Source: a virus. From it: a DNA stretch of 36,186 nucleotides. The notes under the pieces were generated by a model. It searched no databases, had not been told where the DNA came from, and worked only from the letters and a program-made list of their open reading frames with translations. How positions within the stretch are numbered: the stretch's first letter is position 1; each line of letters starts with the position of its first letter. The stretch lies in the IMG/VR virus record IMGVR_UViG_3300024520_000243, positions 1 through 36,186 of that record; one strand, given 5' to 3'. This document shows, piece by piece, positions 12,108 to 36,086 of the stretch. The translations under genes and the position numbers were made by a program.

Positions 12108-12707
12108 TTAAACAATGATGTCTGCAATTCCGTGTTCTACCGCTTCTTCGGCATTGAAATAGATATCTACTTTTTTGTTTAGCATCTTCTTCAATCCGCT
12201 TCGGCTGATATTGGTTTCTTTGGCCAAAGCATTGATGTGTTGTTCTTGGACCCAGCGAGTTTCAATAATTTCGTTTTCAAGTATGTGGACTGGTCCGTAA
12301 TGTCCTCCGCGAATTGAGTGTATCATAACTCTTGTGTTCTTGCCAATTTTTCTTTTACCCTTTGTACCGGCAGCAAGCAATAATACTCCTGCTGACATTA
12401 CTTTACCAAAAGCAAATGTATGAACTTCGCAGGTTTTTTGAACCATTCGCATAAGGTCATAGATTGCAAACATTCCCAAGGCATCGCCGCCCCAAGTAGA
12501 AATACACAAATCTATAGGTTGCTCGGGTGCGTCCTTTAAAGCCAGTAGGCCAAGGCAAATATTTTCTACGGCTTCTTCGTCTAAATCTCCAAAAAGAGAT
12601 AAAGTTCTTGACGAGTTTGATTCAGAGGGAAGGTCGGCAAAACTTATTCGTAAAGTTTCTTTTGAATCTTCCCCCTCGGGTTTAGTCTTCTCTGTTTCGT
12701 CGCTCAT
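12108..12707 (-). CDS. clpP: ClpP-type serine protease
   Basis: A 199-residue ClpP-fold protein. Family marks are CISTWGGDALGMFAIYDLM (oxyanion-hole glycines and dimer helix), FGKVMSAGVLLLAAG with the nucleophile Ser105, RVMIHSIRGG with His130, and KKVDIYFNAEEAVEHGIAD with Asp181, so the catalytic triad is intact. ClpP normally forms tetradecamers fed by ClpX or ClpA. No ATPase partner is visible here, so it may use a host unfoldase. Alternatively it may act as a prohead protease, since several phage head proteases have this fold. The neighbouring acidic protein would suit a head-assembly context. Ribosome site AAGGAGAG; its 5' end overlaps the upstream membrane protein gene by 26 bases. Confidence 0.9.
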   Translation of the reverse strand: MSDETEKTKPEGEDSKETLRISFADLPSESNSSRTLSLFGDLDEEAVENICLGLLALKDAPEQPIDLCISTWGGDALGMFAIYDLMRMVQKTCEVHTFAFGKVMSAGVLLLAAGTKGKRKIGKNTRVMIHSIRGGHYGPVHILENEIIETRWVQEQHINALAKETNISRSGLKKMLNKKVDIYFNAEEAVEHGIADIIV

Positions 12708-14104: not shown

Positions 14105-14500
14105 TTATATACCTTCCTTTGTTGTTTCATCGCTGATTAAGTCAAAAATGTTTTCTATCTCTTCCTGGTTCAATCCAAATCGTTTTATTATATCTTGTTC
14201 TTTTTTGCGAATCGTCCTCGCTTTCTTCAGTCTAAATTTCCTCGCCATCATACTTTTCTCCTTCACTTTCTCAATAAAGGGCATAAGCTCTTCGTCTTCA
14301 GATAAGTAAGCTTTAATGTACTCGTTGAAGAAGAAGAATTTTGTAACATCATCAAACTTTAGTTTGAGAATCAAATTTACGTCTAACGCCTCCAGTGATG
14401 GAAACATTATATACTTTGCGCCTTCTGGTAGTGTCTTTTTTGTCACGGAAGAATATGAGTCCTGCCTTCGCTTAGGCCAGCCGAAGTTTGCTGTACCCAT
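14105..14500 (-). CDS. Hypothetical protein (131 aa)
   Basis: A 131-residue protein with a hydrophobic aromatic stretch (KLKFDDVTKFFFFNEYIKAY), an acidic segment, and a strongly basic helix (RKFRLKKARTIRKKEQDIIK) before an acidic end (NQEEIENIFDLISDE). It starts inside the 3' end of the GMP reductase-like gene (58-base overlap) with an AGAAGG site, and its stop is directly followed by the ATG of the sigma-4-like gene. A virion role is possible but not shown. Confidence 0.6.
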   Translation of the reverse strand: MGTANFGWPKRRQDSYSSVTKKTLPEGAKYIMFPSLEALDVNLILKLKFDDVTKFFFFNEYIKAYLSEDEELMPFIEKVKEKSMMARKFRLKKARTIRKKEQDIIKRFGLNQEEIENIFDLISDETTKEGI

Positions 14501-15453
14501 TTGACCTTCTCTCTGAATTCGTTTATCGTTCGTGCCCCTGAGTATGAGAATCCCGAACTGATTCCATTCTTTATGCTCTCTAATATATCTGTAACGGGGC
14601 CTTTGTGGTCTATGAGCGTGCTTATTCCTTCTTCCGATGATGTTCTGCCTCGCCAGTCCATTTGAGCGTCTTTGCTTGCCATCCCGCGATACTTTTTGAC
14701 TAAGCCGGTAGGGGTTTGAATCTCTTCGCCGGGGGATTCGTTGGTTCCCGCAAGTAGCGAGCCAAGCATTACAAAATCTGCTCCTGCTGCGAAGGCTTTA
14801 ACGATGTCTCCACTTGTTCTGATTCCTCCATCGGCAATGATTTTGGCCTTTCTGGTAGATTTTGAGCAGTCAATGATGGTTTGGAGTCCCGGCAATCCGT
14901 GGCCAGTCTGTATTCGAGTCGAGCAGATTGAGCCTCCACCGATATTACATCTTATACTGTTGGCTCCCCAATCTGATAAATCGTTAAAGGCTTGCTGGGT
15001 TGCTACGTTTCCTGCCATAATATGGAGATCATCACTAAAAAATTTTCGTAACGCGAAAAGGGCTTCCTTCATCAGTATGTGATGGCCGTGAGCCACGTCT
15101 ACACACAAAACATTTGCTCCTGCGGCATGTACAGCGGAAGCTCTTTCAAGAAAATCGCCTGTGACACCGATTGCTGCTCCAATATTCTGTGTCTCTCTGA
15201 CTGCGGCAGCTTGAACTGAGACAGTTTGCTCCTCGATGGAATTGTAACGATGGATAATTCCTATGCCGCCTTGATTAGAAATGGCCGTGACCATTGCTGA
15301 TTCTGTAACCGTATCCATAGGAGAAGAGATGACAGGCAGGTCTAAATATATTTTGTTATCGAGATTGTTGCCAATGTCTACTTCTTTTCTGCTTTTAATG
15401 TCAGAGTACTGAGGGATTAAAAGTATGTCATCATACGTCAGAGCTAACGTCAT
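14443..15453 (-). CDS. IMP dehydrogenase / GMP reductase-type enzyme
   Basis: A 336-residue TIM-barrel enzyme. It opens LALTYDDILLIPQYSDIKSR, has SSPMDTVTES and GGIGIIHRYNS, and the active-site loop IGGGSICSTRIQTGHGLPG whose cysteine attacks the purine C2. It has no CBS module, so at 336 residues it is near the length of GMP reductase. The STRxxTGHGxPxL arrangement and YRGMASKDAQ also fit GMP reductase (GMP to IMP) better than IMP dehydrogenase, though IMPDH without CBS domains cannot be excluded. It would shift purine pools during infection. It overlaps DUF3310-like and hypothetical genes on both sides; ribosome site GAGG. Confidence 0.88.
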   Translation of the reverse strand: MTLALTYDDILLIPQYSDIKSRKEVDIGNNLDNKIYLDLPVISSPMDTVTESAMVTAISNQGGIGIIHRYNSIEEQTVSVQAAAVRETQNIGAAIGVTGDFLERASAVHAAGANVLCVDVAHGHHILMKEALFALRKFFSDDLHIMAGNVATQQAFNDLSDWGANSIRCNIGGGSICSTRIQTGHGLPGLQTIIDCSKSTRKAKIIADGGIRTSGDIVKAFAAGADFVMLGSLLAGTNESPGEEIQTPTGLVKKYRGMASKDAQMDWRGRTSSEEGISTLIDHKGPVTDILESIKNGISSGFSYSGARTINEFREKVKWVQQTSAGLSEGRTHILP

Positions 15454-17849: not shown

Positions 17850-20800
17850 TTATCCTAATAATTTCCAATCCGACAACGCAGCTTTGGTGGAAAATCCCCA
17901 TTGCTCCTGATGATTCAGCTTTGCCATATATGGCCGATTCAAATGAATCTTATCCTTGTCCGGTCTGATTCCCCAACATTTAATATCAATCATCTCAGAA
18001 TTAATATCAAGAGTCTTGACGATATAATAGTATCTTCCCTTCAGCGTTTTCTTGACAAGAACCTCGCGAGGAATAAACCAAGCAAGTTTTAAGTCTTCGT
18101 CGTATTCTGAAATGGGAGTCACACAGAAGTATTCTAAACGCTTTCTGATATCTTCCGACAGAATAAGGTCAAAGGGATAAAGGCCGCTGAGATTTACTTT
18201 GTTCTCAATAGTTTCGTCGCGAGTAAAGTCTTCGGTGTCTTTGTACTCTTCAATAGCCTCGCCTAATTTCTTTCTGTTCTTTGGCCGGTTGTCTGCTACA
18301 GAGTGCCAGAAGTGTTTAAGGTTCACAAACCTTTCGTCCATTAGCTCATTTAATACTTCAGCCCTAATCAGAACGTCAATAGCCTTTTTGTTGAGCTTCG
18401 CGTAAACAATCTCATCATTGAAAAGGAATTCTTCAATAGTATTGAAGGGTCGATGGTCAATGATTTGTTCAATTGCTTTCTCGCCCAATCCCTTGATAGA
18501 TGTCAATGGCTGAATGAGAGTTTTGTTATCAGCAGAGATTTCCCAGACGACGCCAGACTTGTTAATGCTCATTGGCTCGATTTTGTAGCCAAACTTCTTG
18601 GCAAGGTTAATTGCTTTTTCCTTTCTTGACTCGGGTTCTTTATCTAAGAAAGCGGCCATCCACTCTGAAGGATAATAGTTTAGCAGCCAAGCGCACTGGT
18701 AAGAAATAATAGAATAGGAAATAGCATGAGACTTGTTAAAACCGTAGCCGCTGAAATACTCAAACTTTTGCCATATCTCTTGTGCCTTCTTATTCGATAT
18801 TCCCTTAGATTCACAACCTTCAACGAATTTTCTGTGGATCTTATTCTTCTTTTCATTTGTTTTCCCGGTTCCCTTTTTGGTTAATAATTTTCTAAGTAAG
18901 TTTCCCTCGTCCAAGCTAAGATTTTTGCCAAGCTTGTGTGCCAAGAGAGCAATTTGTTCCTGAAAGATGAGGAAGCCATACGTTTCTTTTGTGATTTCTC
19001 TAACAATCTTGTGTCCGTATTTAATATCTGAGGCGTTCTTCCTTGCCTCCACATAACTTTCGTGTACATTTGCTGACAATGGGCCAGGACGGAAGATGGA
19101 AGTAATTGCAGCGATGTCAATAATATTTTTTGGCTTGACTCGCTTGCAAAAGGTTTGGGCACCCTTTTCTGTAAACTGGAATATGCCAGCCCACTTTCCT
19201 TTCTGAAAGATATTCTTGTAGACGGCGCTGTCGTTCAGGTTAATGGTTTCTGGGTGTAGATTTTTATCATAATATTCTTTTACCTGTTCGAATGAAGGTT
19301 CTTCAATGTCGTGATGACGTTTAAGAATGTGAGAGATTGCCCCTTCAATCATTTTCAGTGTTGAGAGTCCGAGAATATCAAACTTAATGAAACCCATTGG
19401 TTCCAGTTGACGAATATGTTGACCTTCTGACCAAGGAGTCTGAGTTATGCCGCCGCTATTAATCAATGGCATCCTCTTGTCAAGGTCTTCCCCAATCACA
19501 ACGCCGCCAGCATGTCTTGAAACAGAACGGACCTGACCCATTAAAGCCTCGACGTGAGTTTTAATCTTTGGATACTTTTCCAAGAATCCTTTAAGACTGT
19601 GGGAATATTCCATGACCTCTTCAAAGTTTGGAGTGTGCACACCAGCTTTAATCCCTTTAATCTTCTTTGCTATCGGAGTTCCCCCGGACATCATTCTAGA
19701 AGTAACTGCGTTGACCTCAAGGAATGGAATACTGTACAGTTTTGATATATCTTTTATGAGCGAGCGCAATTGCAGCTTGTTAAAGTTTGAAATGGGAACT
19801 ACAGTGTTTCCTCCCCATTCCTTAATAAGCGTTTCTTTGAGTGCCATTGGGTCGCCAACGTCATAATCGATGTCAGGGTAGTCTTCGGTGTCTTTCCGCA
19901 GAAAGCGAGAGAAAAGAAGGTTGTATTTGATAGGATCTACCTGTGTAATGCCAAGGGCATACGCAACCAAACTTCCTGCGGCTGAACCTCTACCCGCTCC
20001 GGTCAATTGTGTTTCGGTCGCACGGTCGGCAACGGCCTTCATGGTTAAAAAATATTTGCTGAAGCCTGTGTTGCTGATTGTATAGAGTTCTTCTTTAACT
20101 CTGTCTAAATATTCTTTGTTGTCCTTGAGTTTTTTGTCCCTCAAACCTTCTACGCAAGCGGCAACCAAAGCTTTATCGGCTGACATTCCTGCCGGGACTA
20201 CAAAGCTTGGCAGACGAACGGTATTGTCTGGCATAAAGGAATCTATACGATTGTGTGCGATGTGATGAGTTCGTTCGATGCTTTCTCTTACTATATCATC
20301 ATCATACGAAGCTCCAACTTTCTCTGAGTAGTACTTGTAGGATTCCCACATCTCTTCGCCATTCTTAGGGTAGATCTCATAGCCAATTTCATCAACGTTT
20401 ATGGGGAGTTCCACTGGCATCCAGTCTGGGAATTTGCCCTTGCCTAAGAATCCTAATCTCTTGTAGAGTTCGCGGTCTTTCCAAGCATCTCTCGTGGGAT
20501 AGTGACTATCAGCAGTTGAGACAAGTTTGATTCCATATTCTTTGCTTATCTGAATAATATATTTATTGAGTTCGTGTTGTTCTTTCGCACTGAGCCATTG
20601 AAGCTCGCCATACCAGCGGTCCCCAAAGATAGATATCATCTTTTCTGTGGTCTTCCTCATTTCGCTCATTACTGCATCGGGGCCACTGTCTCTATTTTCC
20701 CAATAATTACCAGCATATACGCCGCCGAGGCAAGCGCTTGTTGCTATTACTCCTTCGCTGTGGTTGGCCAACATTTTGTAATCCATTCTCGGGAAGCGGT

Positions 20801-21275
20801 AAAAGTTGTCGGTTTGAAATGATTTGGAGACCAAAGAGAAAATATTGTTGAGGCCCGTTTGGTTTTGGGCCAAGAGAATGAGATGCCGTCGTCTGTTTAG
20901 AATACTTTTACTGAGACTTTTTGTGCTCTCGTCTTCAATTGTTGTACCGGATTTGGACTTATCAATTTGTCTTTTGGCTTTCTTGTCTTGCTTTACTTTC
21001 TCAAGCTCACTTCTCCATTTGCTGATACTGGGGAGAAAATAGGCTTCAACACCAAAAATGGGCTTAAAGTCTTTGCCTTCTTTCATCATATCTTGAGCGT
21101 GCTGAACCTGATAGGCAAAGCCGTTCATGTTTCCGTGGTCAGTCAGAGCAAGCGCATCTGAACCATTTTCAAAAGCAAAGTCCATATGCTCGGCAGGATA
21201 GCCCAAACCATCAAACGGACTTCCGACTCCGCTATGCGCGTGTAAACCGGCAAATGGTATGCTACTCTTCTTCAT
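17850..21275 (-). CDS. dnaE: DNA polymerase III alpha subunit (family C, DnaE type)
   Basis: A 1141-residue replicative polymerase, close to cellular DnaE in length. The N-terminal PHP domain keeps its metal ligands: HAH (residues 12-14), TDHGN, GVEAYF, and TADSHYP, so it may have proofreading activity. The palm has PDIDYDVGDP, matching the two catalytic aspartates of DnaE, and FIKFDILGLSTL supplies the third. Helix-hairpin-helix and C-terminal regions follow. The open frame begins earlier, but the ATG at 21275 (MKKSSIPFAGLHAHSG) has GGGGGA upstream and starts the PHP strand correctly. It overlaps the upstream gene by 14 bases. A family A polymerase is encoded too (34898-36079). Confidence 0.95.
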   Translation of the reverse strand: MKKSSIPFAGLHAHSGVGSPFDGLGYPAEHMDFAFENGSDALALTDHGNMNGFAYQVQHAQDMMKEGKDFKPIFGVEAYFLPSISKWRSELEKVKQDKKAKRQIDKSKSGTTIEDESTKSLSKSILNRRRHLILLAQNQTGLNNIFSLVSKSFQTDNFYRFPRMDYKMLANHSEGVIATSACLGGVYAGNYWENRDSGPDAVMSEMRKTTEKMISIFGDRWYGELQWLSAKEQHELNKYIIQISKEYGIKLVSTADSHYPTRDAWKDRELYKRLGFLGKGKFPDWMPVELPINVDEIGYEIYPKNGEEMWESYKYYSEKVGASYDDDIVRESIERTHHIAHNRIDSFMPDNTVRLPSFVVPAGMSADKALVAACVEGLRDKKLKDNKEYLDRVKEELYTISNTGFSKYFLTMKAVADRATETQLTGAGRGSAAGSLVAYALGITQVDPIKYNLLFSRFLRKDTEDYPDIDYDVGDPMALKETLIKEWGGNTVVPISNFNKLQLRSLIKDISKLYSIPFLEVNAVTSRMMSGGTPIAKKIKGIKAGVHTPNFEEVMEYSHSLKGFLEKYPKIKTHVEALMGQVRSVSRHAGGVVIGEDLDKRMPLINSGGITQTPWSEGQHIRQLEPMGFIKFDILGLSTLKMIEGAISHILKRHHDIEEPSFEQVKEYYDKNLHPETINLNDSAVYKNIFQKGKWAGIFQFTEKGAQTFCKRVKPKNIIDIAAITSIFRPGPLSANVHESYVEARKNASDIKYGHKIVREITKETYGFLIFQEQIALLAHKLGKNLSLDEGNLLRKLLTKKGTGKTNEKKNKIHRKFVEGCESKGISNKKAQEIWQKFEYFSGYGFNKSHAISYSIISYQCAWLLNYYPSEWMAAFLDKEPESRKEKAINLAKKFGYKIEPMSINKSGVVWEISADNKTLIQPLTSIKGLGEKAIEQIIDHRPFNTIEEFLFNDEIVYAKLNKKAIDVLIRAEVLNELMDERFVNLKHFWHSVADNRPKNRKKLGEAIEEYKDTEDFTRDETIENKVNLSGLYPFDLILSEDIRKRLEYFCVTPISEYDEDLKLAWFIPREVLVKKTLKGRYYYIVKTLDINSEMIDIKCWGIRPDKDKIHLNRPYMAKLNHQEQWGFSTKAALSDWKLLG

Positions 21276-22146
21276 TAATAATTTCCCCCAATGGATTAAG
21301 TTCACTATATGATAATATAAAATCTTTTGGTCTGTCAAGTGAATTCTCTGAACTAAACCAGTTTTTTAAGTTCTCCCAGTTGGACACGTCATAGTACCAA
21401 GGAATCTCAACATCGAAAAGGTTTTCTGTTGAAACATCAGCAAATACAAAGTCATGAGTAAAGAATCTTCCTGTGTAAGCTTTGTCTCTCGTAATGTGTT
21501 TCAAGTCTTTGTCGCTTCCTCTTACCTCGTTTGTTCTGAATCTCTTTCTTGTTATTAGATAGTCTTCCGCGCTGAAGGTGAATGGCAGGTACAAGCCGTC
21601 TCTGAAGGTCTGCTGGTTGTAAGAAACATGGAATGACCTTTCGCTTCTTATCTTGGCTCTGTGTTCCACCATATAATAAGGAGTAAACATACCGTAGGGA
21701 AAGGATACGAAGTATTTGTCAGGAGTGACCCAGCGGCTTATTTTGCGGCTGACGACATATGCGTTGTGAGCGCCAGTGATAATACTCCAAGAAAGACAAT
21801 TTCTTCTGCCAGCATCTTTAGGATGAGTAGGTACATAATATATAGGAATCTCTTTTACTTTCGGGAAGTTGCCGAACTTAGCGTTCTTAAAGTAAATGTG
21901 AGGGTCCACAACATAATCGCCAAGTCTATAGCGGATTAAGGGCTGAATGTCTTTGGGGCATACAAGCCAAATGGTATCGCATCCAGCAATGGCACAGTCA
22001 AAGACAGCCTTCTCGACAGCCAAATAGTTGTGGCCAATGGGAATCAGGCTGTCGTGCCAAGGAAATGTGAAGTCAAGGGGCTGTCCGTCGATTGGGACAA
22101 TGCCGACCAAGTTGAATCTTCTTTTATTTATTGGGTTAACTTCCAT
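21262..22146 (-). CDS. Nucleotidyltransferase-like protein (294 aa)
   Basis: A 294-residue protein whose first 60 residues (NLVGIVPIDGQPLDFTFPWH, then PIGHNYLAVEKAVFDCAIAG and CDTIWLVC) follow the layout of GT-A-fold nucleotidyltransferases that activate sugars or cofactors. The usual GxGxR/K signature is not clear, so activity is uncertain. The segment DKYFVSFPYGMFTPYYM may correspond to the substrate loop. A TTG at 22152 is in frame, but the ATG at 22146 seems better. It overlaps the 3' end of the next upstream gene, suggesting the two products work together. Confidence 0.55.
   Translation of the reverse strand: MEVNPINKRRFNLVGIVPIDGQPLDFTFPWHDSLIPIGHNYLAVEKAVFDCAIAGCDTIWLVCPKDIQPLIRYRLGDYVVDPHIYFKNAKFGNFPKVKEIPIYYVPTHPKDAGRRNCLSWSIITGAHNAYVVSRKISRWVTPDKYFVSFPYGMFTPYYMVEHRAKIRSERSFHVSYNQQTFRDGLYLPFTFSAEDYLITRKRFRTNEVRGSDKDLKHITRDKAYTGRFFTHDFVFADVSTENLFDVEIPWYYDVSNWENLKNWFSSENSLDRPKDFILSYSELNPLGEIINEEE
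21309..21338 (-). promoter_or_regulatory. Weak candidate promoter for the DNA polymerase III gene
   Basis: A perfect TTGACA (21333-21338) lies within the 3' end of the nucleotidyltransferase-like gene. The -10 is unclear: TATCAT at 18 bases (21309-21314) or TATTAT at 15 bases (21312-21317). It is 34 bases before the polymerase ATG. Confidence 0.35.
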
Positions 22147-23266: not shown

Positions 23267-25135
23267 TTATTTGATCTCGCAGGCGCCGCCAGCGCAAGCA
23301 AGCTCTCCAGTTAAATTCGTATTATCATTATACTCTATAACTTTTGTTAAGTCAATCTCTTTTAGCGTATCAATCAAACTTTCGTACCTATCCTTGGTAC
23401 AGCTTTCAAAAGGAGCCTGAACGTAGGTATGTTCTTTATCGTCGTAGGGAAGGACACTTAAGCCATTGTAACTATTGCGGTTTTCCCACATCCACTCGCC
23501 AACGTCATCCCACTCTTTTTCTTTGATGCTTACTGTTGCTGATACATTGTGAGTGTTCTGTCCTTTTCTGTGGCCTGTCTTGGTCCACTCGGTACTAATC
23601 TTCTTGACACGCTCAAGCATACTAAGGGCACTCTCGTTTCTGAGAATTGCTCCCCGAGGGGCACTTTGGGGTACGCCGATAACTGCTGTGTCGTGTGGCC
23701 TGAAGTATTCATCTTCAACTAATTCTGGATGTTTATTTTTCAAATAAGAATAAATTGATTCAGTCTTGCCAACTCTTATTCTACGAATATAATATCTATC
23801 ATGCCAAGAGTGTACTCCGCTTGAAGTTCCAAGGGTTAAAGAGGTTGTTCCGGCAGGTTTAACGCAGGTTGTTCTTGCGGCTGAGTTGATACCAATTATC
23901 TCTGCTACCCGTTTGTTCTCTTCAATTACTGTCTTGACTGCCTTCTTCATATCCAGCTTTAAAACTTTTCCAGAGGCAATGCCAGTCATACTGACGCCGA
24001 TTAGAGCATCTTTTTCTGTGTTTCGTCTCCATACCTCTCGAAGATAGTGAAAGTCGGTGTAAGAGGCTTGCAGAGTTGCAATGAAAGAAGCGGCCTTTGA
24101 CCTATCTTCATATTCATCTTGAGAACTTAAGTCGCTTGCGTTGATCTCTACCAAATTGCAAAACTGAAAGGGTCTCAAAGCGATTTCGCAGCAAGGATTC
24201 GTCCCCCAGTCCTTATCGTTGGAAAAATAAAATCCAGGCTCTCCGCAACCGGAAGCTTGAACTCGCTGCCAAAGACTTTTAAAGAAGTCTTTTGTAATTA
24301 AATGTCTCATTAGAACAGCAGAATTGTTTGCTCTGCCTCTTTGTGGGTTTTGCTCCCACCAATTGCCGGTTTTTGCGGCAAGCATTTCTTTATCGTCAGC
24401 GCTGAATAGTGAAATGAGGGCTGCTCTGCGAATACCACCAGCCAAAACCGCATCAGCAACATAACAAATGATGTCATGCACTTCCAAGGTAGAAAGCTTG
24501 TCGCCTGATTCTTTCTCTCTGAGTATACCATCAATCTTTACGAGGCACTCTTTGAGTGGTTGAGGGCCGGGAGCAGTACCGCCGGAAGTTACAAGTTTTT
24601 CGCCTTTTGCTCGGATATCGCTATAATCGAATCGGACCTTGGAGCCACCCTTAAAATAGCTTCCCATCAAAGCTTTAACAGCATCTGCCCAGCCTTCAAT
24701 GGAATCGTTTACGAGGAATCGTCGGGTGCGCTTGACAGAGGGTTTCTGAATCTCTGGAAGATTTTCAACATGGTGCTTCTGAACGCTATAACCAACGCCG
24801 GTACCGCCCAACAGCAAAAACATTGTTTCGCTAAAGGCTCGCCAGTCGTCGATTGGTAAGTAGGCACAATTAAAAATTCTATTGGGGGCGACCTCAATGG
24901 GTTTACCACCAAATTGCATGGAGCGCATTGAGGGTAATACCTTTTTATCGTAAACGTATGTGTAGGCTGCGCTGATTTCCTTTTTAAGTTCAGGAAACTT
25001 TTTAAGATGCATCTTCTTATTTCGGGTTACAAGCTCTTCCCAAGTCTCTCGACGTTCTTTTTTGGGCAAGTAGCGAGCGTATTTCATATGAACTGTTATA
25101 TCTGATAGAATTTCATTAGCAACGTTCTCTTCCAT
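23267..25135 (-). CDS. nrdJ: Adenosylcobalamin-dependent (class II) ribonucleotide reductase
   Basis: A 622-residue monomeric-type class II reductase. It shows SMRSMQFGG, FNCAYLPID (active-site cysteine), FLLLGGTGVGYSVQKHHV, the NPCCEIALRPFQFCN radical-site loop (about residues 315-330), and a C-terminal CAGGAC redox pair that would be re-reduced by thioredoxin or glutaredoxin. It makes deoxyribonucleotides using coenzyme B12 without oxygen dependence. It is shorter than the Lactobacillus leichmannii enzyme (about 740 residues), so an allosteric insertion may be missing. It overlaps the helicase stop as TAATG, tying dNTP supply to replication. Confidence 0.93.
   Translation of the reverse strand: MEENVANEILSDITVHMKYARYLPKKERRETWEELVTRNKKMHLKKFPELKKEISAAYTYVYDKKVLPSMRSMQFGGKPIEVAPNRIFNCAYLPIDDWRAFSETMFLLLGGTGVGYSVQKHHVENLPEIQKPSVKRTRRFLVNDSIEGWADAVKALMGSYFKGGSKVRFDYSDIRAKGEKLVTSGGTAPGPQPLKECLVKIDGILREKESGDKLSTLEVHDIICYVADAVLAGGIRRAALISLFSADDKEMLAAKTGNWWEQNPQRGRANNSAVLMRHLITKDFFKSLWQRVQASGCGEPGFYFSNDKDWGTNPCCEIALRPFQFCNLVEINASDLSSQDEYEDRSKAASFIATLQASYTDFHYLREVWRRNTEKDALIGVSMTGIASGKVLKLDMKKAVKTVIEENKRVAEIIGINSAARTTCVKPAGTTSLTLGTSSGVHSWHDRYYIRRIRVGKTESIYSYLKNKHPELVEDEYFRPHDTAVIGVPQSAPRGAILRNESALSMLERVKKISTEWTKTGHRKGQNTHNVSATVSIKEKEWDDVGEWMWENRNSYNGLSVLPYDDKEHTYVQAPFESCTKDRYESLIDTLKEIDLTKVIEYNDNTNLTGELACAGGACEIK
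23327..23355 (-). promoter_or_regulatory. Sigma-70-type promoter for groES, inside nrdJ
   Basis: -35 TTGACT (23350-23355), 17-base spacer, perfect -10 TATAAT (23327-23332) on the minus strand, within the 3' end of nrdJ. The predicted start near 23320 leaves a leader of about 70 bases before the groES ATG, so the co-chaperonin can be made independently of the reductase. Confidence 0.7.
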
Positions 25136-26502
25136 TATTGTTTCTCCTTATTTTTAAACATTTCTTTATAAACTCGTTTAGCGGCATCCATATCCCGCTT
25201 ATTTCTATTATTCACCTCATTCCGCTGAATCTCACAAACATCGTCCTGTTCGAGAACTTTTATGCAAACAGAGCCGGGGTCCATGAAGACAGAAAAGATA
25301 ATTCCATCGGGTCCATTTCTATTTTTAGCAATGAAAAGTCTTCCAATGTTGCTATTTTTATCTTTTATTGTTCTTGAGAGACTGATAATGAAGTCGGCAA
25401 CAAAGCATTTGTTGAACGCTTCGGAAATAGACTCCATGGTAATCACTTCTTCATTCAAACCTTTTCTGTTTGTTTGTGAAGCTGTAATCACAGGGCAACG
25501 GAATTCCTGAGAGAGTCCCCTCAAATCTTCGTAGATTGATTCAAGGTCGTGCCTCTTTTCTGTATTTCTGTGTACACTGCGGAGAAGGTCTCCATAATCT
25601 ACGATAACCATGTCCACTTCCATTTGTGTTTGTTTGACTTTTTCCAAATGATTTCTTATTGTTGTGGTTGAGGCAGACTTTGTAGGATACTCTTTGATTA
25701 TCAGTTGTCCATCAACTTCTTTGATTTTCTCTAAAATGTCATCCTTTTGTTCTAAAAGGTCGTCAAGATTGTGACCCGTGAGACAAGCATCATATCGTTT
25801 GGCAACGGCTGTGTCGGCCAATTCCAATGTATAATGAACAACGTTTTTGCCCTGTTTTAGTGCTTGAGCACCTAAGTGTACTAGAACATGAGATTTACCT
25901 GCGCCTGTTGGGGCCACAACGACAGAAAGCTCTCCTATGCCAAGGCCGCCTTTTGTAATTTTGTCAATCTTTGACCAGCCGGTTGATATTGGGTTTCTTG
26001 CCTTAAATTTGAAACGTTCCTCAAAGTCTTTGATGTAATCGTAACCAAAGTCATTGTCCAGGCCCGAACGGAGAGCTTTTGTAATTAACTTTTCAATCTC
26101 TTCAAAAGAGCATTTATTTAGTAGCGGAACCGATTTCATCATCGCATGTTTTAAAACCTGCTTTTTACAGAAATCAAGGCTTGCTGTTTTTATATATTCT
26201 TTATCGTCAGTTTCAGGGGTTGCCTGTATCCGAACGAAGAATTGTTTAACTTGTTTTTGAATAATGTCGTTTTCTAGCTCCAACTCTGTATTGAAGATAG
26301 AATTCAACGTCCCATTGACTGGGTGTGTCTTGTATTTGTCTTTATAGTCGAAGAGTTTCTTGGCAAAGACTTGAAGATACTTTAGCTCAAAAAAGCCCGT
26401 ATCTAACACTTCTTGCATTTGGTCGCAAAAGGGTCGGTCATATACCAACAACTTACATAAATTTTCCTGAAAACTCTTACCGAAGATACCTAAATTTTCC
26501 AT
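25135..26502 (-). CDS. Replicative DNA helicase (DnaB-type, SF4)
   Basis: A 455-residue hexameric-type helicase. The N-terminal part is a helical DnaB-like domain, and from about residue 170 the RecA-fold ATPase shows GWSKIDKITKGGLGIGELSV, Walker A APTGAGKS, and Walker B MVIVDYGDLL, followed by SQTNRKG, equivalent to the DnaB sensor region. It unwinds DNA ahead of the fork. Sequence style is nearer to T4 gp41 than to bacterial DnaB. No primase domain is fused, and no primase gene is visible in this window. It has its own promoter at 26527-26555. Confidence 0.92.
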   Translation of the reverse strand: MENLGIFGKSFQENLCKLLVYDRPFCDQMQEVLDTGFFELKYLQVFAKKLFDYKDKYKTHPVNGTLNSIFNTELELENDIIQKQVKQFFVRIQATPETDDKEYIKTASLDFCKKQVLKHAMMKSVPLLNKCSFEEIEKLITKALRSGLDNDFGYDYIKDFEERFKFKARNPISTGWSKIDKITKGGLGIGELSVVVAPTGAGKSHVLVHLGAQALKQGKNVVHYTLELADTAVAKRYDACLTGHNLDDLLEQKDDILEKIKEVDGQLIIKEYPTKSASTTTIRNHLEKVKQTQMEVDMVIVDYGDLLRSVHRNTEKRHDLESIYEDLRGLSQEFRCPVITASQTNRKGLNEEVITMESISEAFNKCFVADFIISLSRTIKDKNSNIGRLFIAKNRNGPDGIIFSVFMDPGSVCIKVLEQDDVCEIQRNEVNNRNKRDMDAAKRVYKEMFKNKEKQ

Positions 26503-30092: not shown

Positions 30093-31499
30093 TTATCCTT
30101 CACTCGTCATCATGATAATTTCCTTGTCAGGTTCTGGGGCTTTTTGATGAGGGAAATGAGGCTCATTATCTTTTGATCCCTTGGAGCGATTTTTTTCCAT
30201 TGTCATTAACTCGCCATTCGCTAATGTGGTTTGGCCACCGTTCTTGATCGATTTGACGTGATCTGCCTCATATTGCCCACCTAAATATAAATCAATAATT
30301 TTTATGTCATCACCCTCCCGTGTTTTACCATCTTGCAAAACGTACAAATCGCGTTTTTCATTAAAGGTAAAAGAATCGTTTGAGGTTCTTCGCCGTTTTA
30401 AAACACCGTCTTCGAGAAGTTTTTCGCAAGAAGCTTCAAAAGAGTGATTTAAAAGCTTCCTGGTCTTTAAATAGTTTTCAGAATTTGTATTATATTTCGT
30501 CCAATATGTATAGGATAGCTCTGATTGATTTTCCTCAGTAATATCTTTAGAAGTGTAACGGAAGTCGGCATCAAGCTCTACAAACCAATCAAAAAACCGT
30601 TTTCCTTCACTAATGTCATAGCTTTGTATGACAATATCAACAATTTCAAATAAACTGTGTAGTTGTCCCTTGGTAAACTTGTGTTTGAGAGGCGCGACCT
30701 CAAATTTTTCAATTTGTTTCAAAATGCTCTTAAGGCGCTCTAGCACTTTAGGTTCTAATTCTGCGGCGGTCTCATAAAAACGATCTAGAGCACCTTTCTT
30801 TAAATCAATTGACCTAGTAAACTTTAAAGCAAGTTGTGCAATCATTTCCTCGTGATATCTTTTATCTAAATCTTCGTCTTTTCCAAAAGTAAGATTTTTA
30901 AACAGTTTGCGGTATGTGGCACCAAGTTCTCGAATCGCATCGGAGAGAGAAGACCATCTTGCTTGTCTCCACTCTTGATTGTTTAATGCAGTATTGGTGT
31001 TCAAGCGACGAAAAAGATTACACATATCAACAATACCGATCCTACGCAATGTAATAACGTTAACCTTTTCAGTATATTTAATTTCTTCTTGTTCTTCGCT
31101 GGAATATTCAGAAAACCTTTTTCCCTTGGGCTGTACACGGTCGTCATCTTTAACAAAGGCTGCAATATAACTACTAGAATTGTTTCCATCGATGCTTACA
31201 TACTCGAAGCCTTCTTCTGAAACTTGTTCGAAGTACATCTCAGACTCTGTATCGCCCATTTCTGTGGCGTATTTAAGGGCTTCTTTTGTTTCTACTACAA
31301 TAATATGATTATAGACACTCCCCTCTAATAAACTCTTAAGGTAATCATTCCCCATCTTAATGGGCCAGCCAGAGCCTCTATCGATTCCTCCCCATCTCTG
31401 GAAATTACCATCCAGCTTCGTCTTTCCGTGAAGCCTTGAAATGTGATTTAAATTTTTTCTATCTTCTTTTGCATCGTACTTATCTGTCAACAATGGCAT
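30093..31499 (-). CDS. DUF262-type protein with C-terminal HNH nuclease motif
   Basis: A 468-residue protein. The N-terminal half follows the DUF262 plan: FQRWGG near residue 33, an IDGNN motif (residues 103-107) where DUF262 proteins have DGQQR, and FRRLNTNTALNNQEWRQARW. The C-terminus carries an HNH-type nuclease core: YEADHVKSIKNGGQ with His414, then N428 and NRSKGSK. DUF262 proteins with HNH or DUF1524 domains include GmrS/GmrD-type restriction enzymes that cut modified DNA, using nucleotide hydrolysis. In a phage it might degrade rival or host DNA. It lies 3 bases after recA. The altered DGQQR motif makes NTPase activity uncertain. Ribosome site AGGAG. Confidence 0.75.
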   Translation of the reverse strand: MPLLTDKYDAKEDRKNLNHISRLHGKTKLDGNFQRWGGIDRGSGWPIKMGNDYLKSLLEGSVYNHIIVVETKEALKYATEMGDTESEMYFEQVSEEGFEYVSIDGNNSSSYIAAFVKDDDRVQPKGKRFSEYSSEEQEEIKYTEKVNVITLRRIGIVDMCNLFRRLNTNTALNNQEWRQARWSSLSDAIRELGATYRKLFKNLTFGKDEDLDKRYHEEMIAQLALKFTRSIDLKKGALDRFYETAAELEPKVLERLKSILKQIEKFEVAPLKHKFTKGQLHSLFEIVDIVIQSYDISEGKRFFDWFVELDADFRYTSKDITEENQSELSYTYWTKYNTNSENYLKTRKLLNHSFEASCEKLLEDGVLKRRRTSNDSFTFNEKRDLYVLQDGKTREGDDIKIIDLYLGGQYEADHVKSIKNGGQTTLANGELMTMEKNRSKGSKDNEPHFPHQKAPEPDKEIIMMTSEG

Positions 31500-31502
31500 T
31501 TT

Positions 31503-32618
31503 TTACTTCTCCTCTTCTTCGTAAAAATCTGAAGCATTGCCAATTCTTTGGTCGAATTTCTCGATGAGTTCTTCGTCCATGATTGCCAATACTCGGTTTT
31601 TAAACTTCTCATTTTGAAGTTTAGTTGTCCAATGGGCAGATTGAAACTTTTCGCTCGTCCCATCTTCATATTTAAGTTCATACCAAGCTCCAGAACGTTC
31701 TAAATGCTCTGAGCTTTGAATGGCATCGAACCAACTCTCTTCGTCTTGTACGCCAACATTATCACCCCAAAGGATCTTAAATTGGCATTGACGACCTTGA
31801 GAACCAAAACGTGATTTCTCAAGCTTAACTTTAACTGTGTTTCCTATTCTGAAGCCTTTATCATCCATAACAAAGGATGCCTTTGCTTTTGGTCTGGTTA
31901 GCCAAACACGCAATGAATACGAGTAGATAAGAGTTTTTCCTCCCGGTGTCATATAAGGCGTTGTCATCGCTTCGGAAGGCGAACGTGTAATATTTGCCTT
32001 TAGCTGATTGAGAACAAGTAAAGTTGATTGTGTGTTCGCAATCGAAACCAAAAGCTTTGACATTCCTTTGGAAAGGATTCTGGCCTTTACTGCCATTGTT
32101 GACTGAGGGTTGAAGTCTCCTTCCATATCAGAGTTAGAAGGCGTTAGTGCCAGACTATCCCAGATAAACAACATTCTATTTTCATTTGATTTAAGAAGTT
32201 CCTCGATTGTTTCTAAAACGAATTCAACGCTTGTTGCTTGAATATACAAAATATTACTTGCGTTACATCCGATACGCTCAAGAAATGAGTTGTCTAGAGC
32301 AGACTCAGAATCGAAATAGACTACATCAATTCCTTTCTTTTGGGCATTGGCCGCGATTTGAGCCGCCATATATGATTTTCCACTGGATTCTAGGCCAGCA
32401 ATTTCTGTGATTTTTCCTACTGGAACACCCGCAAGCTTTCCACGACAAATCATACTATCTAGCCAACGAGAACCAGTTGAAATCCAATCGGTTACGTTTG
32501 TTGGGTTATCTTCGTCGTTCAAGTCATGAGCAACTTGCATACCAGCTTTTTTATTTATAAGCTGTCTCATCTGGTCTATGCTGAGTTTGCCAGCTTTTAC
32601 TTCTTTTCTTCGTGCCAT
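31503..32618 (-). CDS. RecA/UvsX-type recombinase
   Basis: A 371-residue strand-exchange protein. Residues 75-82 are the Walker A GLESSGKS, VVYFDSESAL follows, MLFIWDSLAL is Walker B, and STLLVLNQLKANI is the L2/sensor region, with a TPGGKTLIYSYSLRVWL motif of RecA-fold recombinases. The C-terminus is acidic. It promotes homologous recombination and replication restart. The ATG at 32618 (MARRKEVKAGKL) follows AAGGAG at good spacing; the open frame extends upstream but is not coding. Transcription probably starts at the consensus promoter at 32990-33018. Confidence 0.93.
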   Translation of the reverse strand: MARRKEVKAGKLSIDQMRQLINKKAGMQVAHDLNDEDNPTNVTDWISTGSRWLDSMICRGKLAGVPVGKITEIAGLESSGKSYMAAQIAANAQKKGIDVVYFDSESALDNSFLERIGCNASNILYIQATSVEFVLETIEELLKSNENRMLFIWDSLALTPSNSDMEGDFNPQSTMAVKARILSKGMSKLLVSIANTQSTLLVLNQLKANITRSPSEAMTTPYMTPGGKTLIYSYSLRVWLTRPKAKASFVMDDKGFRIGNTVKVKLEKSRFGSQGRQCQFKILWGDNVGVQDEESWFDAIQSSEHLERSGAWYELKYEDGTSEKFQSAHWTTKLQNEKFKNRVLAIMDEELIEKFDQRIGNASDFYEEEEK

Positions 32619-32628
32619 TTGTTTCTCC

Positions 32629-32925
32629 TTATTTTGAAAGCTTAAAGGCGTGATAGCAACTGCGGAAACCTTTCTTATCAATTTTGATTGATACGTTCTC
32701 TCCGTAGTCAATGACCTCTAAGACATAATCTTTGCTTCTTGAGAGAAGATTAGTAATGTCGCTATTGTCTGAATAGAAACTTACATAGCCATCTCCCAAG
32801 TCTTGTTTATAGGCGTTGATAGCCGTTTCGCTGTCTGGCCCTCCGCCTTTACCTTTAAATCGCCTTGCGACTTCTGTTATTTTTTCATTAAAGTTTGGGT
32901 CATCTTTCTTATATACTTTTTTCAT
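32629..32925 (-). CDS. Hypothetical protein upstream of recA (98 aa)
   Basis: A 98-residue basic protein (MKKVYKKDDPNFNEKITEVA...) with a lysine/glycine-rich loop (RRFKGKGGGP) and a beta-rich end. The ATG at 32925 is supported by AGGAG 5 bases upstream; the longer frame begins inside the previous gene. It lies 10 bases before recA in the same transcription unit, so a DNA-related role is plausible but unproved. Confidence 0.6.
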   Translation of the reverse strand: MKKVYKKDDPNFNEKITEVARRFKGKGGGPDSETAINAYKQDLGDGYVSFYSDNSDITNLLSRSKDYVLEVIDYGENVSIKIDKKGFRSCYHAFKLSK

Positions 32926-33267: not shown

Positions 33268-34005
33268 TTAGCCAACAAGTTCGCTAAAAGCTTTATCTAC
33301 ACTATTTTGTGGTGTAGCAGATTCTACTACCACTTCTTCTGAAGCTTCTTCGCTATCCAAATAGGCCGCAAGAATATCTTGAACCTCATCTGGGGTTTTA
33401 CGACCGTTTTCAAACAGTTCTTCGAAATCAGGGATATTTTCCATGAGTTCTACAACTCTCTCCGAATCTTTATGAAGCGGTGAGGATTTACGACGGGGCG
33501 TAATTTTAGTTTCTGGAAAACTTGCTCCTGCTGGTTTACCATATCCAATCACTAAATCTGTTCCAGATTCGGGATCAGTAATGTCACCGTATTCAGGATT
33601 CAAAACAAGACCGAGAAGAGTTTCGTAGGTTCGTTTACCGAATCCCCACATCTTAACACCTTCACTTTCTTCGCCTCGTACTACGACAGGGGCAAAAAAT
33701 CGTTGACGTGCGCCAAGTTTTTTAGCAACTCGTTTAGATTCTTCTGAACCTTCTTTCCACAGTTGACGTACATAACTGTCAAGAGGACAGTCTTCGCCAA
33801 AATTGCGTTTTGGACTCAAAAATCCAGGGGTATCCCCTACATTATAATGAAACCAATAATCACGGAAAGGATCTCCGTCAGGAGTACAGACGATACGAAT
33901 CGTTTGTTCCCCATCTTGTGGACGCCAAAACTTGTTTGAGCCTCCGTTGGCATTGTTTTTAAGCGACACTTGCCGTGCTCGCATTTTTTCCATATTAATA
34001 GACAT
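33268..34005 (-). CDS. Single-stranded DNA-binding protein (T4 gp32-like)
   Basis: A 245-residue protein with the layout of T4 gp32-type SSBs: a basic N-terminus (MSINMEKMRARQVSLKNN), a core with FWRPQDGEQTIRIV, DYWFHYN and CPLDSYVRQLW, and an acidic C-terminal tail ending SVDKAFSELVG. The core's C and H residues could partly match the gp32 zinc site, but I cannot confirm this. It coats single-stranded DNA at the fork and during recombination. It follows the tubulin-like gene by 41 bases; AGGAG is 11 bases before the ATG. A strong promoter lies at 34450-34477 and a hairpin at 34033-34052. Confidence 0.8.
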   Translation of the reverse strand: MSINMEKMRARQVSLKNNANGGSNKFWRPQDGEQTIRIVCTPDGDPFRDYWFHYNVGDTPGFLSPKRNFGEDCPLDSYVRQLWKEGSEESKRVAKKLGARQRFFAPVVVRGEESEGVKMWGFGKRTYETLLGLVLNPEYGDITDPESGTDLVIGYGKPAGASFPETKITPRRKSSPLHKDSERVVELMENIPDFEELFENGRKTPDEVQDILAAYLDSEEASEEVVVESATPQNSVDKAFSELVG

Positions 34006-34032: not shown

Positions 34033-34052
34033 CCCTGACAAATCTCTCAGGG
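34033..34052 (-). promoter_or_regulatory. Hairpin around the tubulin-like stop, upstream of SSB
   Basis: CCCTGA/TCAGGG form a 6-base-pair stem with an 8-base loop that encloses the stop codon of the tubulin-like gene, 28 bases before the SSB start. No T-run follows on the minus strand, so it is not a typical terminator. A role in translational control, as with T4 gene 32 autoregulation, is conceivable. Confidence 0.4.
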
Positions 34053-34889
34053 CGCTAGTTTTTGAATCAAAGTGCTGTTACTTTCACAATAGATGTATGA
34101 CTGATCGTATTCGGTTGGGTATATTGAATAACCCACTTTCATTTTGTCATGCTCTATCGCGTCTTTAACCTGCTCTTTGATTCGGTTCATCAACATAGAG
34201 TCCTTTTCAAGAACTTCATGAGGTATAGCATAATAATACCTTTTTTCTCTTGGAATGTCAAGCGAAAAAAAACATTTTTCTTCTTCATCAAATTTATTAA
34301 AGCCAATTGAGCTAATACGCGCTGTATTGATACGACTGGTAAAAGTCGTGAATACAGGCATACTGTGTTCAAAAACATTAATCATGTGATAATTTGAAGC
34401 AATCATTTGATTTATACTATCCCAGTACTTTAATATTGGTACTGGACCTATTATACCAGATATTAATTGATTGTCAAGTAAAATTATTTTTTCAAGTAGT
34501 GATGACCTTGCGTATTCCTGAAAAATGTTGAACAGCAAGTTGTTTTGTAATTTTTGGTTGTCCGATAGTCCTTCTCTTTCTGGGATGATATACATCAAGG
34601 TAATTTTGGACTTGTCCTTTATTCTCTCCAAAATATTCAGAGCGGTGGCGGTAACATTGCCGCAGCTTGTAATGAATAGCGTTTCCGCATCTACTTTTTC
34701 TAAAAACTTGTTTATGGACTTGGGAACGCTCTTTTCATATAGTTCTACTGAATCTTGCTTTTTCAGGCCGAATGTGTTTTTAGTCTTCTTGAGACCGACA
34801 TCTATATTTAAGACGTTATATTCTGAATATTCCTTCAGACAATTTGCTATGTTACAACCAGCTTTTCCTAGACCTATGACAGTTTGCAT
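34047..34889 (-). CDS. Divergent tubulin/FtsZ-like protein
   Basis: A 280-residue protein that reads like a highly divergent FtsZ/tubulin-superfamily member. MQTVIGLGKAGCNIANCL matches the first nucleotide loop of FtsZ. LFITSCGNVTATALNILERI (residues 71-90) occupies the place of the GGGTGTG signature but has lost most glycines. TLMYIIPEREGLSDNQKLQN, then LEKIILLDNQLI, follow the FtsZ order of strand, F-helix and D-x-LI. It lies between SSB and the family A polymerase. GTP binding, and so polymerisation, is uncertain. Phage tubulins can position or transport genomes and virions. Ribosome site GAGG. Confidence 0.6.
   Translation of the reverse strand: MQTVIGLGKAGCNIANCLKEYSEYNVLNIDVGLKKTKNTFGLKKQDSVELYEKSVPKSINKFLEKVDAETLFITSCGNVTATALNILERIKDKSKITLMYIIPEREGLSDNQKLQNNLLFNIFQEYARSSLLEKIILLDNQLISGIIGPVPILKYWDSINQMIASNYHMINVFEHSMPVFTTFTSRINTARISSIGFNKFDEEEKCFFSLDIPREKRYYYAIPHEVLEKDSMLMNRIKEQVKDAIEHDKMKVGYSIYPTEYDQSYIYCESNSTLIQKLAP
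34450..34477 (-). promoter_or_regulatory. Consensus extended -10 promoter upstream of SSB
   Basis: Perfect -35 TTGACA (34472-34477) and perfect -10 TATAAT (34450-34455) preceded by TGG, spacer 16 bases, on the minus strand. It lies within the tubulin-like gene, about 440 bases before the SSB ATG, and would raise SSB output above that of the upstream genes. Confidence 0.6.
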
Positions 34890-34897
34890 TGTTCCTC

Positions 34898-36079
34898 TTA
34901 ATTAATATTGAGCTTTTTCATGTCGTGCCAATCTTTACCGGCACTACAATTAACTCTAAATTTCCCTAATCGTGTGACATCGAACGCTCTTTTGATATCA
35001 TTCAGAATATATTGATCATCTTCCGAAAAGTCGATAACAAGCGAATCGTGATTACAAAATTTAATAAAACTCTTCCGACCTTCCAAGAGTTCCCAAACCT
35101 TATACATTTGCTCAAAAACGAGATCTGCTGCCGTTGACTGAATGGCGTAATTTACGGCGTGGGCCTCGTCACATTCTATTTCTCGATTAAATATGGTTTT
35201 TACCTTATTGTCCGAAAAATACAAACTTTTGATCTTTTCCCGGTCGTAAATGTCTCCGACCTTAGCTTCGGTGCTTTTGGGGTTATAAAGCCAAGCAAAG
35301 ATCCTTTTCTTAGCGTTATCGCGATCTTTTGACCTAAGAAAGACATTCTTTAGGTTCCATTCGTGAAGATCTCCTTCTGGCTGCTCGTGGTCTAATAAGC
35401 CCAAAGCAACTCGCAATTCGCAAGCGTTGAAGTCGATTTCAAAGAGCCAATCATTTGTCGGCTTTAATACTTTACGATATTTCTTAGCCAGTGTCATCAC
35501 TGGAAAAGAATTCTTTTTTGTGCTTAAGCGGCCTGTGACCGTTTTGAACTGGTCGTAAGATATAACTTTGTCGCATTCTTGTAGTGTTTTGATGATGTTT
35601 CTATCTTGTACTGTGATGCTCTTTATTACGCTTGTGTCGATTTTCAATGGCTGTGATTTAATTTCAGTGATCATCTTTTCTAAGTTTAGGATATCATTGT
35701 AGTTTTCTGGTCTCTCACAGTTATCGAAGATGTGGTTACAAATGTTGTTTTTTATAGAGGCCCATTTTTCGAGCATATGTGTCGGCATCAGGTCATAAAG
35801 ACATATATCCTTTAGATTTACGCCTGTTGCTACGGCAGATTTTAAAACTGCTCTGAGTCTCGCTTGAATTTCTTCTAATTCTTCTTTCCATGAATCAGGG
35901 CACGCCTCTTCAAGAGTTTGACCAGCGGCAAATAAGTTTGCATATTCAATATCGTGTTTTTTAAGGTAAGGGGCGTATGACCAAGTTTTATGGCAATCGT
36001 CTGTGATTTCTTTGAAGAACTGTGAGTTCTTATAAATCATGAAGCAGTCATTTTTTTCGTCAAAAGTTTGAAACAGCAT
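34898..36079 (-). CDS. Family A DNA polymerase without exonuclease domain
   Basis: A 393-residue polymerase domain. TVTGRLSTKKN opens the thumb-palm region. Motif A reads EIDFNACELRVAL with the catalytic Asp, motif B is RDNAKKRIFAWLYNP, and motif C is CNHDSLVID (HDS instead of HDE). It is far shorter than E. coli Pol I (928) or T7 polymerase (704): the 3'-5' and 5'-3' exonuclease domains are missing, the latter being encoded separately at 27303-28271. The ATG at 36079 is preferred; GTG at 36085 is also in frame. The promoter's -10 lies only 7 bases upstream, implying a leaderless mRNA. A family C polymerase is at 17850-21275. Confidence 0.85.
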   Translation of the reverse strand: MLFQTFDEKNDCFMIYKNSQFFKEITDDCHKTWSYAPYLKKHDIEYANLFAAGQTLEEACPDSWKEELEEIQARLRAVLKSAVATGVNLKDICLYDLMPTHMLEKWASIKNNICNHIFDNCERPENYNDILNLEKMITEIKSQPLKIDTSVIKSITVQDRNIIKTLQECDKVISYDQFKTVTGRLSTKKNSFPVMTLAKKYRKVLKPTNDWLFEIDFNACELRVALGLLDHEQPEGDLHEWNLKNVFLRSKDRDNAKKRIFAWLYNPKSTEAKVGDIYDREKIKSLYFSDNKVKTIFNREIECDEAHAVNYAIQSTAADLVFEQMYKVWELLEGRKSFIKFCNHDSLVIDFSEDDQYILNDIKRAFDVTRLGKFRVNCSAGKDWHDMKKLNIN

Positions 36080-36086
36080 TACCACT

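What the first reader, a model, noticed from the sequence alone, without database searches (positions are those of the whole stretch)
34047..34889. Divergent tubulin/FtsZ-like protein with an eroded GTP signature
The first nucleotide loop (GLGKAGCNI) and the strand order after it follow FtsZ, but the GGGTGTG signature has become TSCGNVTATA. Known phage tubulins (PhuZ, TubZ) keep this signature. A degenerate member beside SSB and a DNA polymerase may have lost GTPase activity and become a scaffold, or may form a new branch of the superfamily linked to replication rather than DNA segregation.
Basis: partly seen in the sequence, partly recalled or inferred. Interest (0 to 1): 0.8.

Follow-up and report, generated by a model that had tools for sequence, protein, structure and literature searches.

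The report
Signature-less tubulin-fold protein of phage replication
Large uncultured phages carry, always between a small DNA polymerase gene and the single-strand DNA-binding protein gene, a compact relative of tubulin/FtsZ that has kept the fold and the guanine-binding residues but lost the usual GTP-splitting parts, which hints at a tubulin-like scaffold for viral DNA replication.

Summary
The ORF (34047-34889, minus, 280 aa) is real, and the tubulin reading holds. A 148-sequence alignment gave a confident AlphaFold2 model (pLDDT 95.3). It matches CetZ (Z 24.8), TubZ (23.4), FtsZ (22.9) and tubulin (about 21.8) over nearly the whole chain. Sequence evidence alone is weak: Pfam Tubulin scores 20 bits against a cut-off of 33.

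The altered signature belongs to the whole family and is not decay. None of 187 distinct relatives has GGGTGTG; about two thirds have a glycine-rich substitute such as GGSGxISG. dN/dS is 0.07-0.11. Retained: loop T1 and the two asparagines aligned with tubulin's guanine contacts (N140, N160). Missing: the T3 Gly loop, a canonical T4, any conserved T7 acid, and helices H8 and H9 in the model. The best-conserved region besides T1 is the end of helix H5 (QEYARS).

Synteny is absolute where testable: polA upstream in 176/176 loci, gp32 downstream in 201/201. The phages resemble the described divPolA1 group (immuto), but isolates carry an unrelated small protein there. No relative was found in 50,697 phage records.

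Best explanation: a nucleotide-binding, probably non-hydrolysing tubulin-fold scaffold or adaptor of the replication-recombination machinery. GTP binding and assembly are untested.

The parts
34047..34889 (-). Mini-tubulin: 280-aa tubulin-fold protein
   Evidence: AF2 model pLDDT 95.3; VIA-align Z 21-25 to CetZ, TubZ, FtsZ, tubulin
34851..34874 (-). T1 nucleotide loop, residues 6-13 (GLGKAGCN)
   Evidence: G6, G8, G11 invariant in the 187-sequence set
34644..34667 (-). T4 position, residues 75-82 (SCGNVTAT); family forms GGSGxISG or SCGxVSG, never GGGTGTG
   Evidence: 0 of 187 canonical; variants listed
34503..34532 (-). End of helix H5, residues 120-129 (FNIFQEYARS): most conserved element besides T1
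   Evidence: conservation 0.85 against 0.87 for T1; Q124, R128, S129 kept in the most divergent members
34470..34472 (-). T6 asparagine N140, aligned with tubulin N206 / FtsZ IPN
   Evidence: invariant in 187; register
34368..34436 (-). Core helix H7, residues 152-174, with N160 (codon 34410-34412) aligned with tubulin N228
   Evidence: model helix 152-174; N160 invariant in 187
34317..34367 (-). T7/H8-equivalent stretch, residues 175-191: loop, no H8 helix, no conserved acid
   Evidence: DSSP of the model; acid 54% at most at any position
34050..34316 (-). Reduced C-terminal domain, residues 192-280 (S7, S8, H10, S9, S10)
   Evidence: model elements
34898..36085 (-). Small family A DNA polymerase, divPolA1-like; always upstream
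   Evidence: PF00476 6.9e-14; profile hits the immuto polymerase at 58 bits; upstream in 176 of 176 loci
33268..34005 (-). gp32-type single-strand DNA-binding protein; always downstream
   Evidence: PF08804 1.8e-13; phrog_1192 3.1e-25; downstream in 201 of 201 loci
31503..32711 (-). UvsX-like recombinase of the same gene block
   Evidence: phrog_97 5.6e-55; PF00154 1.3e-37
25135..26502 (-). DnaB-type replicative helicase of the same strand block
   Evidence: phrog_19 7.8e-72
17850..21338 (-). Family C (DnaE-type) DNA polymerase, likely main replicase
   Evidence: phrog_405 9.9e-231; PF07733 5.9e-49

Best explanation
The ORF encodes a minimal tubulin/FtsZ-fold protein of a group of large uncultured tailed phages related to the divPolA1 (immuto-like) phages, in the gene block divPolA1 - mini-tubulin - gp32 - (UvsX, nuclease, helicase). 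Shown by computation: the fold, the family-wide absence of the canonical T4 signature and of a conserved T7 acid, the absence of H8/H9 in the model, the fixed gene order, and purifying selection. Inferred: it still binds a guanine nucleotide, through T1 and the T6/H7 asparagines, as a structural cofactor; it hydrolyses it slowly or not at all; and it acts as a static scaffold or adaptor, alone or as a short oligomer, that holds SSB, the small polymerase or the recombinase through the conserved surface at the ends of H5 and H7.
For: Fold. Invariant T1 glycines, N140 and N160. No canonical T4, T3 or T7 in 187 sequences. Fixed polA-X-gp32 order in 176/176 and 201/201 testable loci, none on the opposite strand. 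dN/dS 0.07-0.11. H5 end as conserved as T1, and kept where the pocket wavers.
Against: No biochemical evidence for binding, hydrolysis or any partner. Gene order suggests a functional link but not physical contact. One divergent member (L441) lacks both asparagines, so nucleotide binding may be dispensable there. hhalign with FtsZ is not significant. Position of the conserved patch was not mapped on coordinates.
Confidence: 0.45

Rival explanations
1. A monomeric mediator or loader (working like T4 UvsY or gp59) built on a tubulin fold, in which the nucleotide pocket is a relic with no role.
For: Position next to gp32 and UvsX. Pocket residues drop out in L441 and L445 while the H5/H7-end residues stay.
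Against: T1 glycines and both asparagines are invariant in 187 sequences, which a relic pocket would not need.
Confidence: 0.22
2. A dynamic filament former like PhuZ or TubZ that positions or segregates phage DNA, using non-canonical residues for hydrolysis.
For: Fold match to TubZ, Z 23.4; phage tubulins with this role are known (PMC10299810).
Against: No canonical T4, no conserved T7 acid, no H8, the parts that form the protofilament contact and hydrolyse GTP in PhiKZ TubZ (PMC3678025). At least seven contigs carry a separate tubulin with canonical signature.
Confidence: 0.15
3. A decoy that binds host FtsZ and blocks division during infection.
For: FtsZ-like upper face kept, lower catalytic element lost, which could suit a capping role (inference).
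Against: Only 10-14% identity to FtsZ in structural alignments; fixed place in a replication block; QEYARS patch unexplained.
Confidence: 0.1
4. Not a tubulin relative but another Rossmann-type protein.
For: Weak sequence hits to dehydrogenases and TrkA_N in profile searches.
Against: Those hits are weak (PDB E 1 or more; Pfam E 0.002-0.01 in single members). All listed fold matches are FtsZ, CetZ, TubZ or tubulin, with Z above 21 over the whole chain.
Confidence: 0.02

Closest known systems
CetZ (archaeal tubulin/FtsZ family; 3zid, 4b45)
   Same: Best VIA-align match, Z 24.8, 2.9 A over 257 residues
   Different: 16% identity or less; CetZ is a cellular protein of over 330 residues; no fixed replication-gene context known to me
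TubZ (plasmid/phage partition tubulin; 2xka, 4ei7)
   Same: Fold, Z 23.4 over 274 residues
   Different: T7/H8 element and canonical signature lacking here; no TubR/centromere partner was identified here (not searched for specifically)
PhuZ / PhiKZ TubZ (phage tubulin)
   Same: Phage-encoded tubulin fold
   Different: PhuZ carries the T4 signature (PMC10299810) and a T7 catalytic aspartate (PMC3678025); both lacking here
FtsZ
   Same: Fold, Z 22.9; T1 loop; N140 on the FtsZ IPN asparagine
   Different: No GGGTGTG, no GxGAG, no conserved T7 acid, no H8/H9; hhalign not significant
divPolA1 phages (Flavobacterium phage immuto group; PMC11348598)
   Same: Same small PolA, SSB, recombinase, nuclease, helicase order; GroEL; extra regular polymerase
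   Different: The gap between polA and gp32 holds an unrelated small protein in immuto, Mel-JY01 and LR756508; no mini-tubulin detected
A0A6J5RW92, 'FtsZ cell division GTPase' of an uncultured Caudovirales phage
   Same: Best viral structural match, TMq 0.80
   Different: 452 aa, 11% identity; its genome was not available to compare context

Membership tests
Tubulin/FtsZ superfamily (by fold) | Tubulin/FtsZ fold: nucleotide domain, core helix H7, C-terminal domain | tested here: met
   Model pLDDT 95.3; Z 21-25 over about 260 of 280 residues
Tubulin/FtsZ superfamily (by fold) | T1 glycine loop | tested here: met
   G6, G8, G11 invariant in 187 sequences
Tubulin/FtsZ superfamily (by fold) | Guanine-contacting residues in T6 and H7 | tested here: met
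   N140 and N160 invariant in 187; lost in L441; residue roles from general knowledge
Canonical tubulin/FtsZ GTPase family (PF00091) | Pfam gathering score | tested here: not met
   20 bits against 33; 0 of 19 long relatives over the cut-off
Canonical tubulin/FtsZ GTPase family (PF00091) | T4 signature GGGTGTG/SG | tested here: not met
   0 of 187
Canonical tubulin/FtsZ GTPase family (PF00091) | T7 catalytic acid with helix H8 | tested here: not met
   No acid above 54% at 170-192; no H8 in the model
Canonical tubulin/FtsZ GTPase family (PF00091) | GTP binding, GTP hydrolysis, protofilaments | not testable with these tools
   Needs purified protein
PhuZ/TubZ phage tubulins | T4 signature and T7 catalytic aspartate | tested here: not met
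   PhuZ features from PMC10299810 and PMC3678025
PhuZ/TubZ phage tubulins | Filaments that position or segregate DNA | not testable with these tools
   Needs microscopy
divPolA1-type phage replication block | Small PolA upstream of gp32/recombinase plus a second regular DNA polymerase | tested here: met
   polA profile hits immuto at 58 bits; family C polymerase in the window and in 15 of 19 long relatives

The most novel reading that the evidence does not exclude
A tubulin-fold protein that no longer hydrolyses GTP has become a fixed structural part of a phage replication-recombination complex, recognising partners through a surface at the ends of H5 and H7. It would be a non-cytomotive branch of the superfamily, and in some phages it works beside a second, canonical-signature phage tubulin.
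Probability: 0.35. Interest if true: 0.85.

Novelty: new variant of a known kind. Interest (0 to 1): 0.62.

Why it matters
Known tubulin-superfamily proteins are generally GTP-driven filament formers. A family of at least several hundred viral members with the fold but without the signature or the catalytic helix, locked into a replication operon, would show that the fold can be recruited for a different job. It also makes directly testable what nucleotide binding does in a tubulin without turnover, and whether phage replisomes use tubulin-like scaffolds.

Tried and rejected
A first AlphaFold2 run with only three sequences gave pLDDT 39 and was discarded. Profile searches against PDB sequences found no tubulin, and hhalign with 23 FtsZ was not significant; so sequence alone does not prove the relation, the fold does. 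SirA, cysteine synthase and dehydrogenase sequence hits to PDB chains had E above 0.1 and were rejected. PHROGs and NCBIfam gave no useful family. tblastn in 50,697 phage records found only T4-like terminase chance hits for the window protein and nothing for L014 and L236. A pattern scan of the GTDB genomes found no relative; it is pattern-based and could miss distant ones. I tested whether the small immuto gap protein is a mini-tubulin piece: 2.8 bits, no. I looked for it in the window and the 240 loci: absent. GroEL is not specific to mini-tubulin phages, as immuto has it too. Three divPolA1 genomes named in PMC11348598 were not held, so the gap in those could not be read. Papers on a phage mini-tubulin or pseudo-tubulin: none found in the library.

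Full report
The observation. It starts 8 nt after the stop of a family A DNA polymerase gene, behind a GAGG site, and is followed by a gp32-type SSB. The window is a 36,186-base IMG/VR virus record. A recombinase, an HNH-type protein, a 5'-3' exonuclease, a DnaB-type helicase and a ribonucleotide reductase follow on the same strand.

Is it a real, conserved gene? Yes. Identity to the window protein goes down to 31%. dN/dS in six pairs is 0.07-0.11, including pairs with unsaturated dS of 0.53 and 0.64. No relative was found among 50,697 phage records or by pattern scan in the GTDB genomes.

Is it a tubulin? By sequence only marginally: Pfam Tubulin 20 bits, E 9e-4, below the 33-bit cut-off, reached at E 0.01 by only 9 of 148 relatives. 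hhalign against 23 FtsZ sequences was not significant, although its register puts N140 on the FtsZ IPN asparagine. By fold clearly: an alignment of 148 sequences gave a model with pLDDT 95.3 and pTM 0.92. Foldseek ranks FtsZ first (E 3e-13, probability 1.00) with TubZ and tubulin close behind. VIA-align gives CetZ Z 24.8 (2.9 A over 257 residues), TubZ 23.4, FtsZ 22.9 and tubulin about 21.8, all spanning the chain.

What is kept and what is lost. In 187 sequences T1 glycines G6, G8 and G11 and the T6 and H7 asparagines N140 and N160 are invariant. The latter correspond by element order to the guanine-contacting N206 and N228 of tubulin (residue roles from general knowledge). An aromatic residue precedes N160 by four positions in most members. 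None has the canonical signature; about a third carry SCGxVSG, the rest mostly glycine-rich forms such as GGSGxISG, SGAGxISG and CGAGxISG. None has the T3 GxGAG loop. No acid is conserved in the T7-equivalent stretch 170-192 (54% at most), and the model shows no H8 or H9 between H7 and S8. In PhiKZ TubZ, tubulin and FtsZ, T7 and the base of H8 form the protofilament contact and T7 supplies the catalytic aspartate (PMC3678025). Canonical hydrolysis in trans is thus unlikely; other chemistry is not excluded.

A second conserved site. After T1, the best conserved element is the end of H5 (residues 120-129, QEYARS); H168, M169 and N171 at the end of H7 are also nearly invariant. In the superfamily these helix ends lie opposite the nucleotide (general knowledge; not mapped on coordinates here). 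In the most divergent members the pocket wavers (L441 lacks both asparagines, L445 lacks G11), but Q124, R128, S129, H168 and N171 stay. I read this as a partner-binding surface; it is inference from few sequences.

Context. Loci were chosen by the mini-tubulin alone, yet polA lies upstream in all 176 loci with room and gp32 downstream in all 201 with room, always on the same strand. The median gap is 5.5 nt after polA and 75 nt before gp32. The six further members found in two-tubulin contigs show the same order. The polymerase belongs with divPolA1, a truncated extra PolA of immuto-like phages of 155-190 kb that also carry a regular polymerase and chaperonins (PMC11348598; profile match). 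The window fits: a 1162-aa family C polymerase at 17850-21338 and GroEL at 8846-10414. In immuto, Mel-JY01 and the uncultured record LR756508 the same gap holds a different 129-151 aa protein (beside other small ORFs), and no mini-tubulin is detectable. The mini-tubulin is thus a lineage-specific component of a replication block, not one universal to it.

Mechanism. Most likely (0.45) it is a nucleotide-binding but non-cycling tubulin-fold scaffold or adaptor for the replication-recombination proteins encoded around it. Shown by computation: fold, losses, selection, synteny. Inferred: nucleotide binding, lack of turnover, partner binding. Rivals are a nucleotide-independent mediator (0.22), a dynamic PhuZ-like filament (0.15) and an FtsZ decoy (0.10). 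A prophage actin, AlpC, is required for efficient phage replication (PMC4446434), so a cytoskeletal fold serving viral replication has a precedent, but AlpC hydrolyses nucleotide.

A second tubulin. One contig (G102, 165,872 bases) also encodes a 364-aa tubulin-like protein with the canonical GGGGGTGS and a T7-like FDSKDLE. It belongs to a second family with at least 107 relatives, invariant T7 aspartates, hhalign probability 95.8% to FtsZ and PDB E 1.7e-9. Six of 20 long contigs of that family also carry the mini-tubulin. None of the records is rated complete, so absence of either gene is not informative.

Verdict. The protein is built on a tubulin fold but is not filed as a canonical tubulin/FtsZ GTPase, TubZ or PhuZ, because tested defining features are not met. 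It is a new, widespread variant of a known fold.

Noticed in passing
L357:1887-2981 (-), contig IMGVR_UViG_3300025131_009739; relatives L360-L439: A second, separate phage tubulin family (about 360 aa) with canonical GGGGGTGS and invariant T7-like aspartates; at least 107 IMG/VR loci, none in the phage records; co-occurs with the mini-tubulin in at least seven contigs.
   Followed up: partly
window 8846-10414 (-): Phage-encoded GroEL (PF00118 1.4e-68); 13 of 19 long relatives and immuto have one too.
   Followed up: partly
window 14443-15453 (-) and 12108-12707 (-): An IMP dehydrogenase/GMP reductase-type protein (PF00478 1.4e-100), i.e. guanine nucleotide metabolism, and a ClpP-type protease (PF00574 3.7e-31).
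   Followed up: no
window 17850-21338 (-) with 34898-36085 (-): Two DNA polymerases in one phage: family C replicase and a small divPolA1-like family A enzyme.
   Followed up: partly
L354:1346-1801, L353:3813-4256, L355:5374-5763 (all +): In immuto, Mel-JY01 and LR756508 an unrelated conserved 129-151 aa protein of unknown function lies between polA and gp32, where the mini-tubulin sits in the window lineage.
   Followed up: partly
L441:1507-2400 (-), L445:1441-2355 (+): Mini-tubulins of some phages that also carry the canonical tubulin have lost pocket residues (both asparagines in L441, G11 in L445) but keep Q124, R128, S129, H168 and N171.
   Followed up: partly
window 30093-31499 (-), compared with L001:4723-6387 (+): HNH-type protein: near-identical phages carry a different version of it here, while the flanking genes are nearly the same; looks like local replacement.
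   Followed up: no
L353:4598-5884 (+): Microcystis phage Mel-JY01 carries an S-adenosylmethionine lyase-type domain (PF23780 4.4e-10) in a hypothetical protein just before gp32.
   Followed up: no
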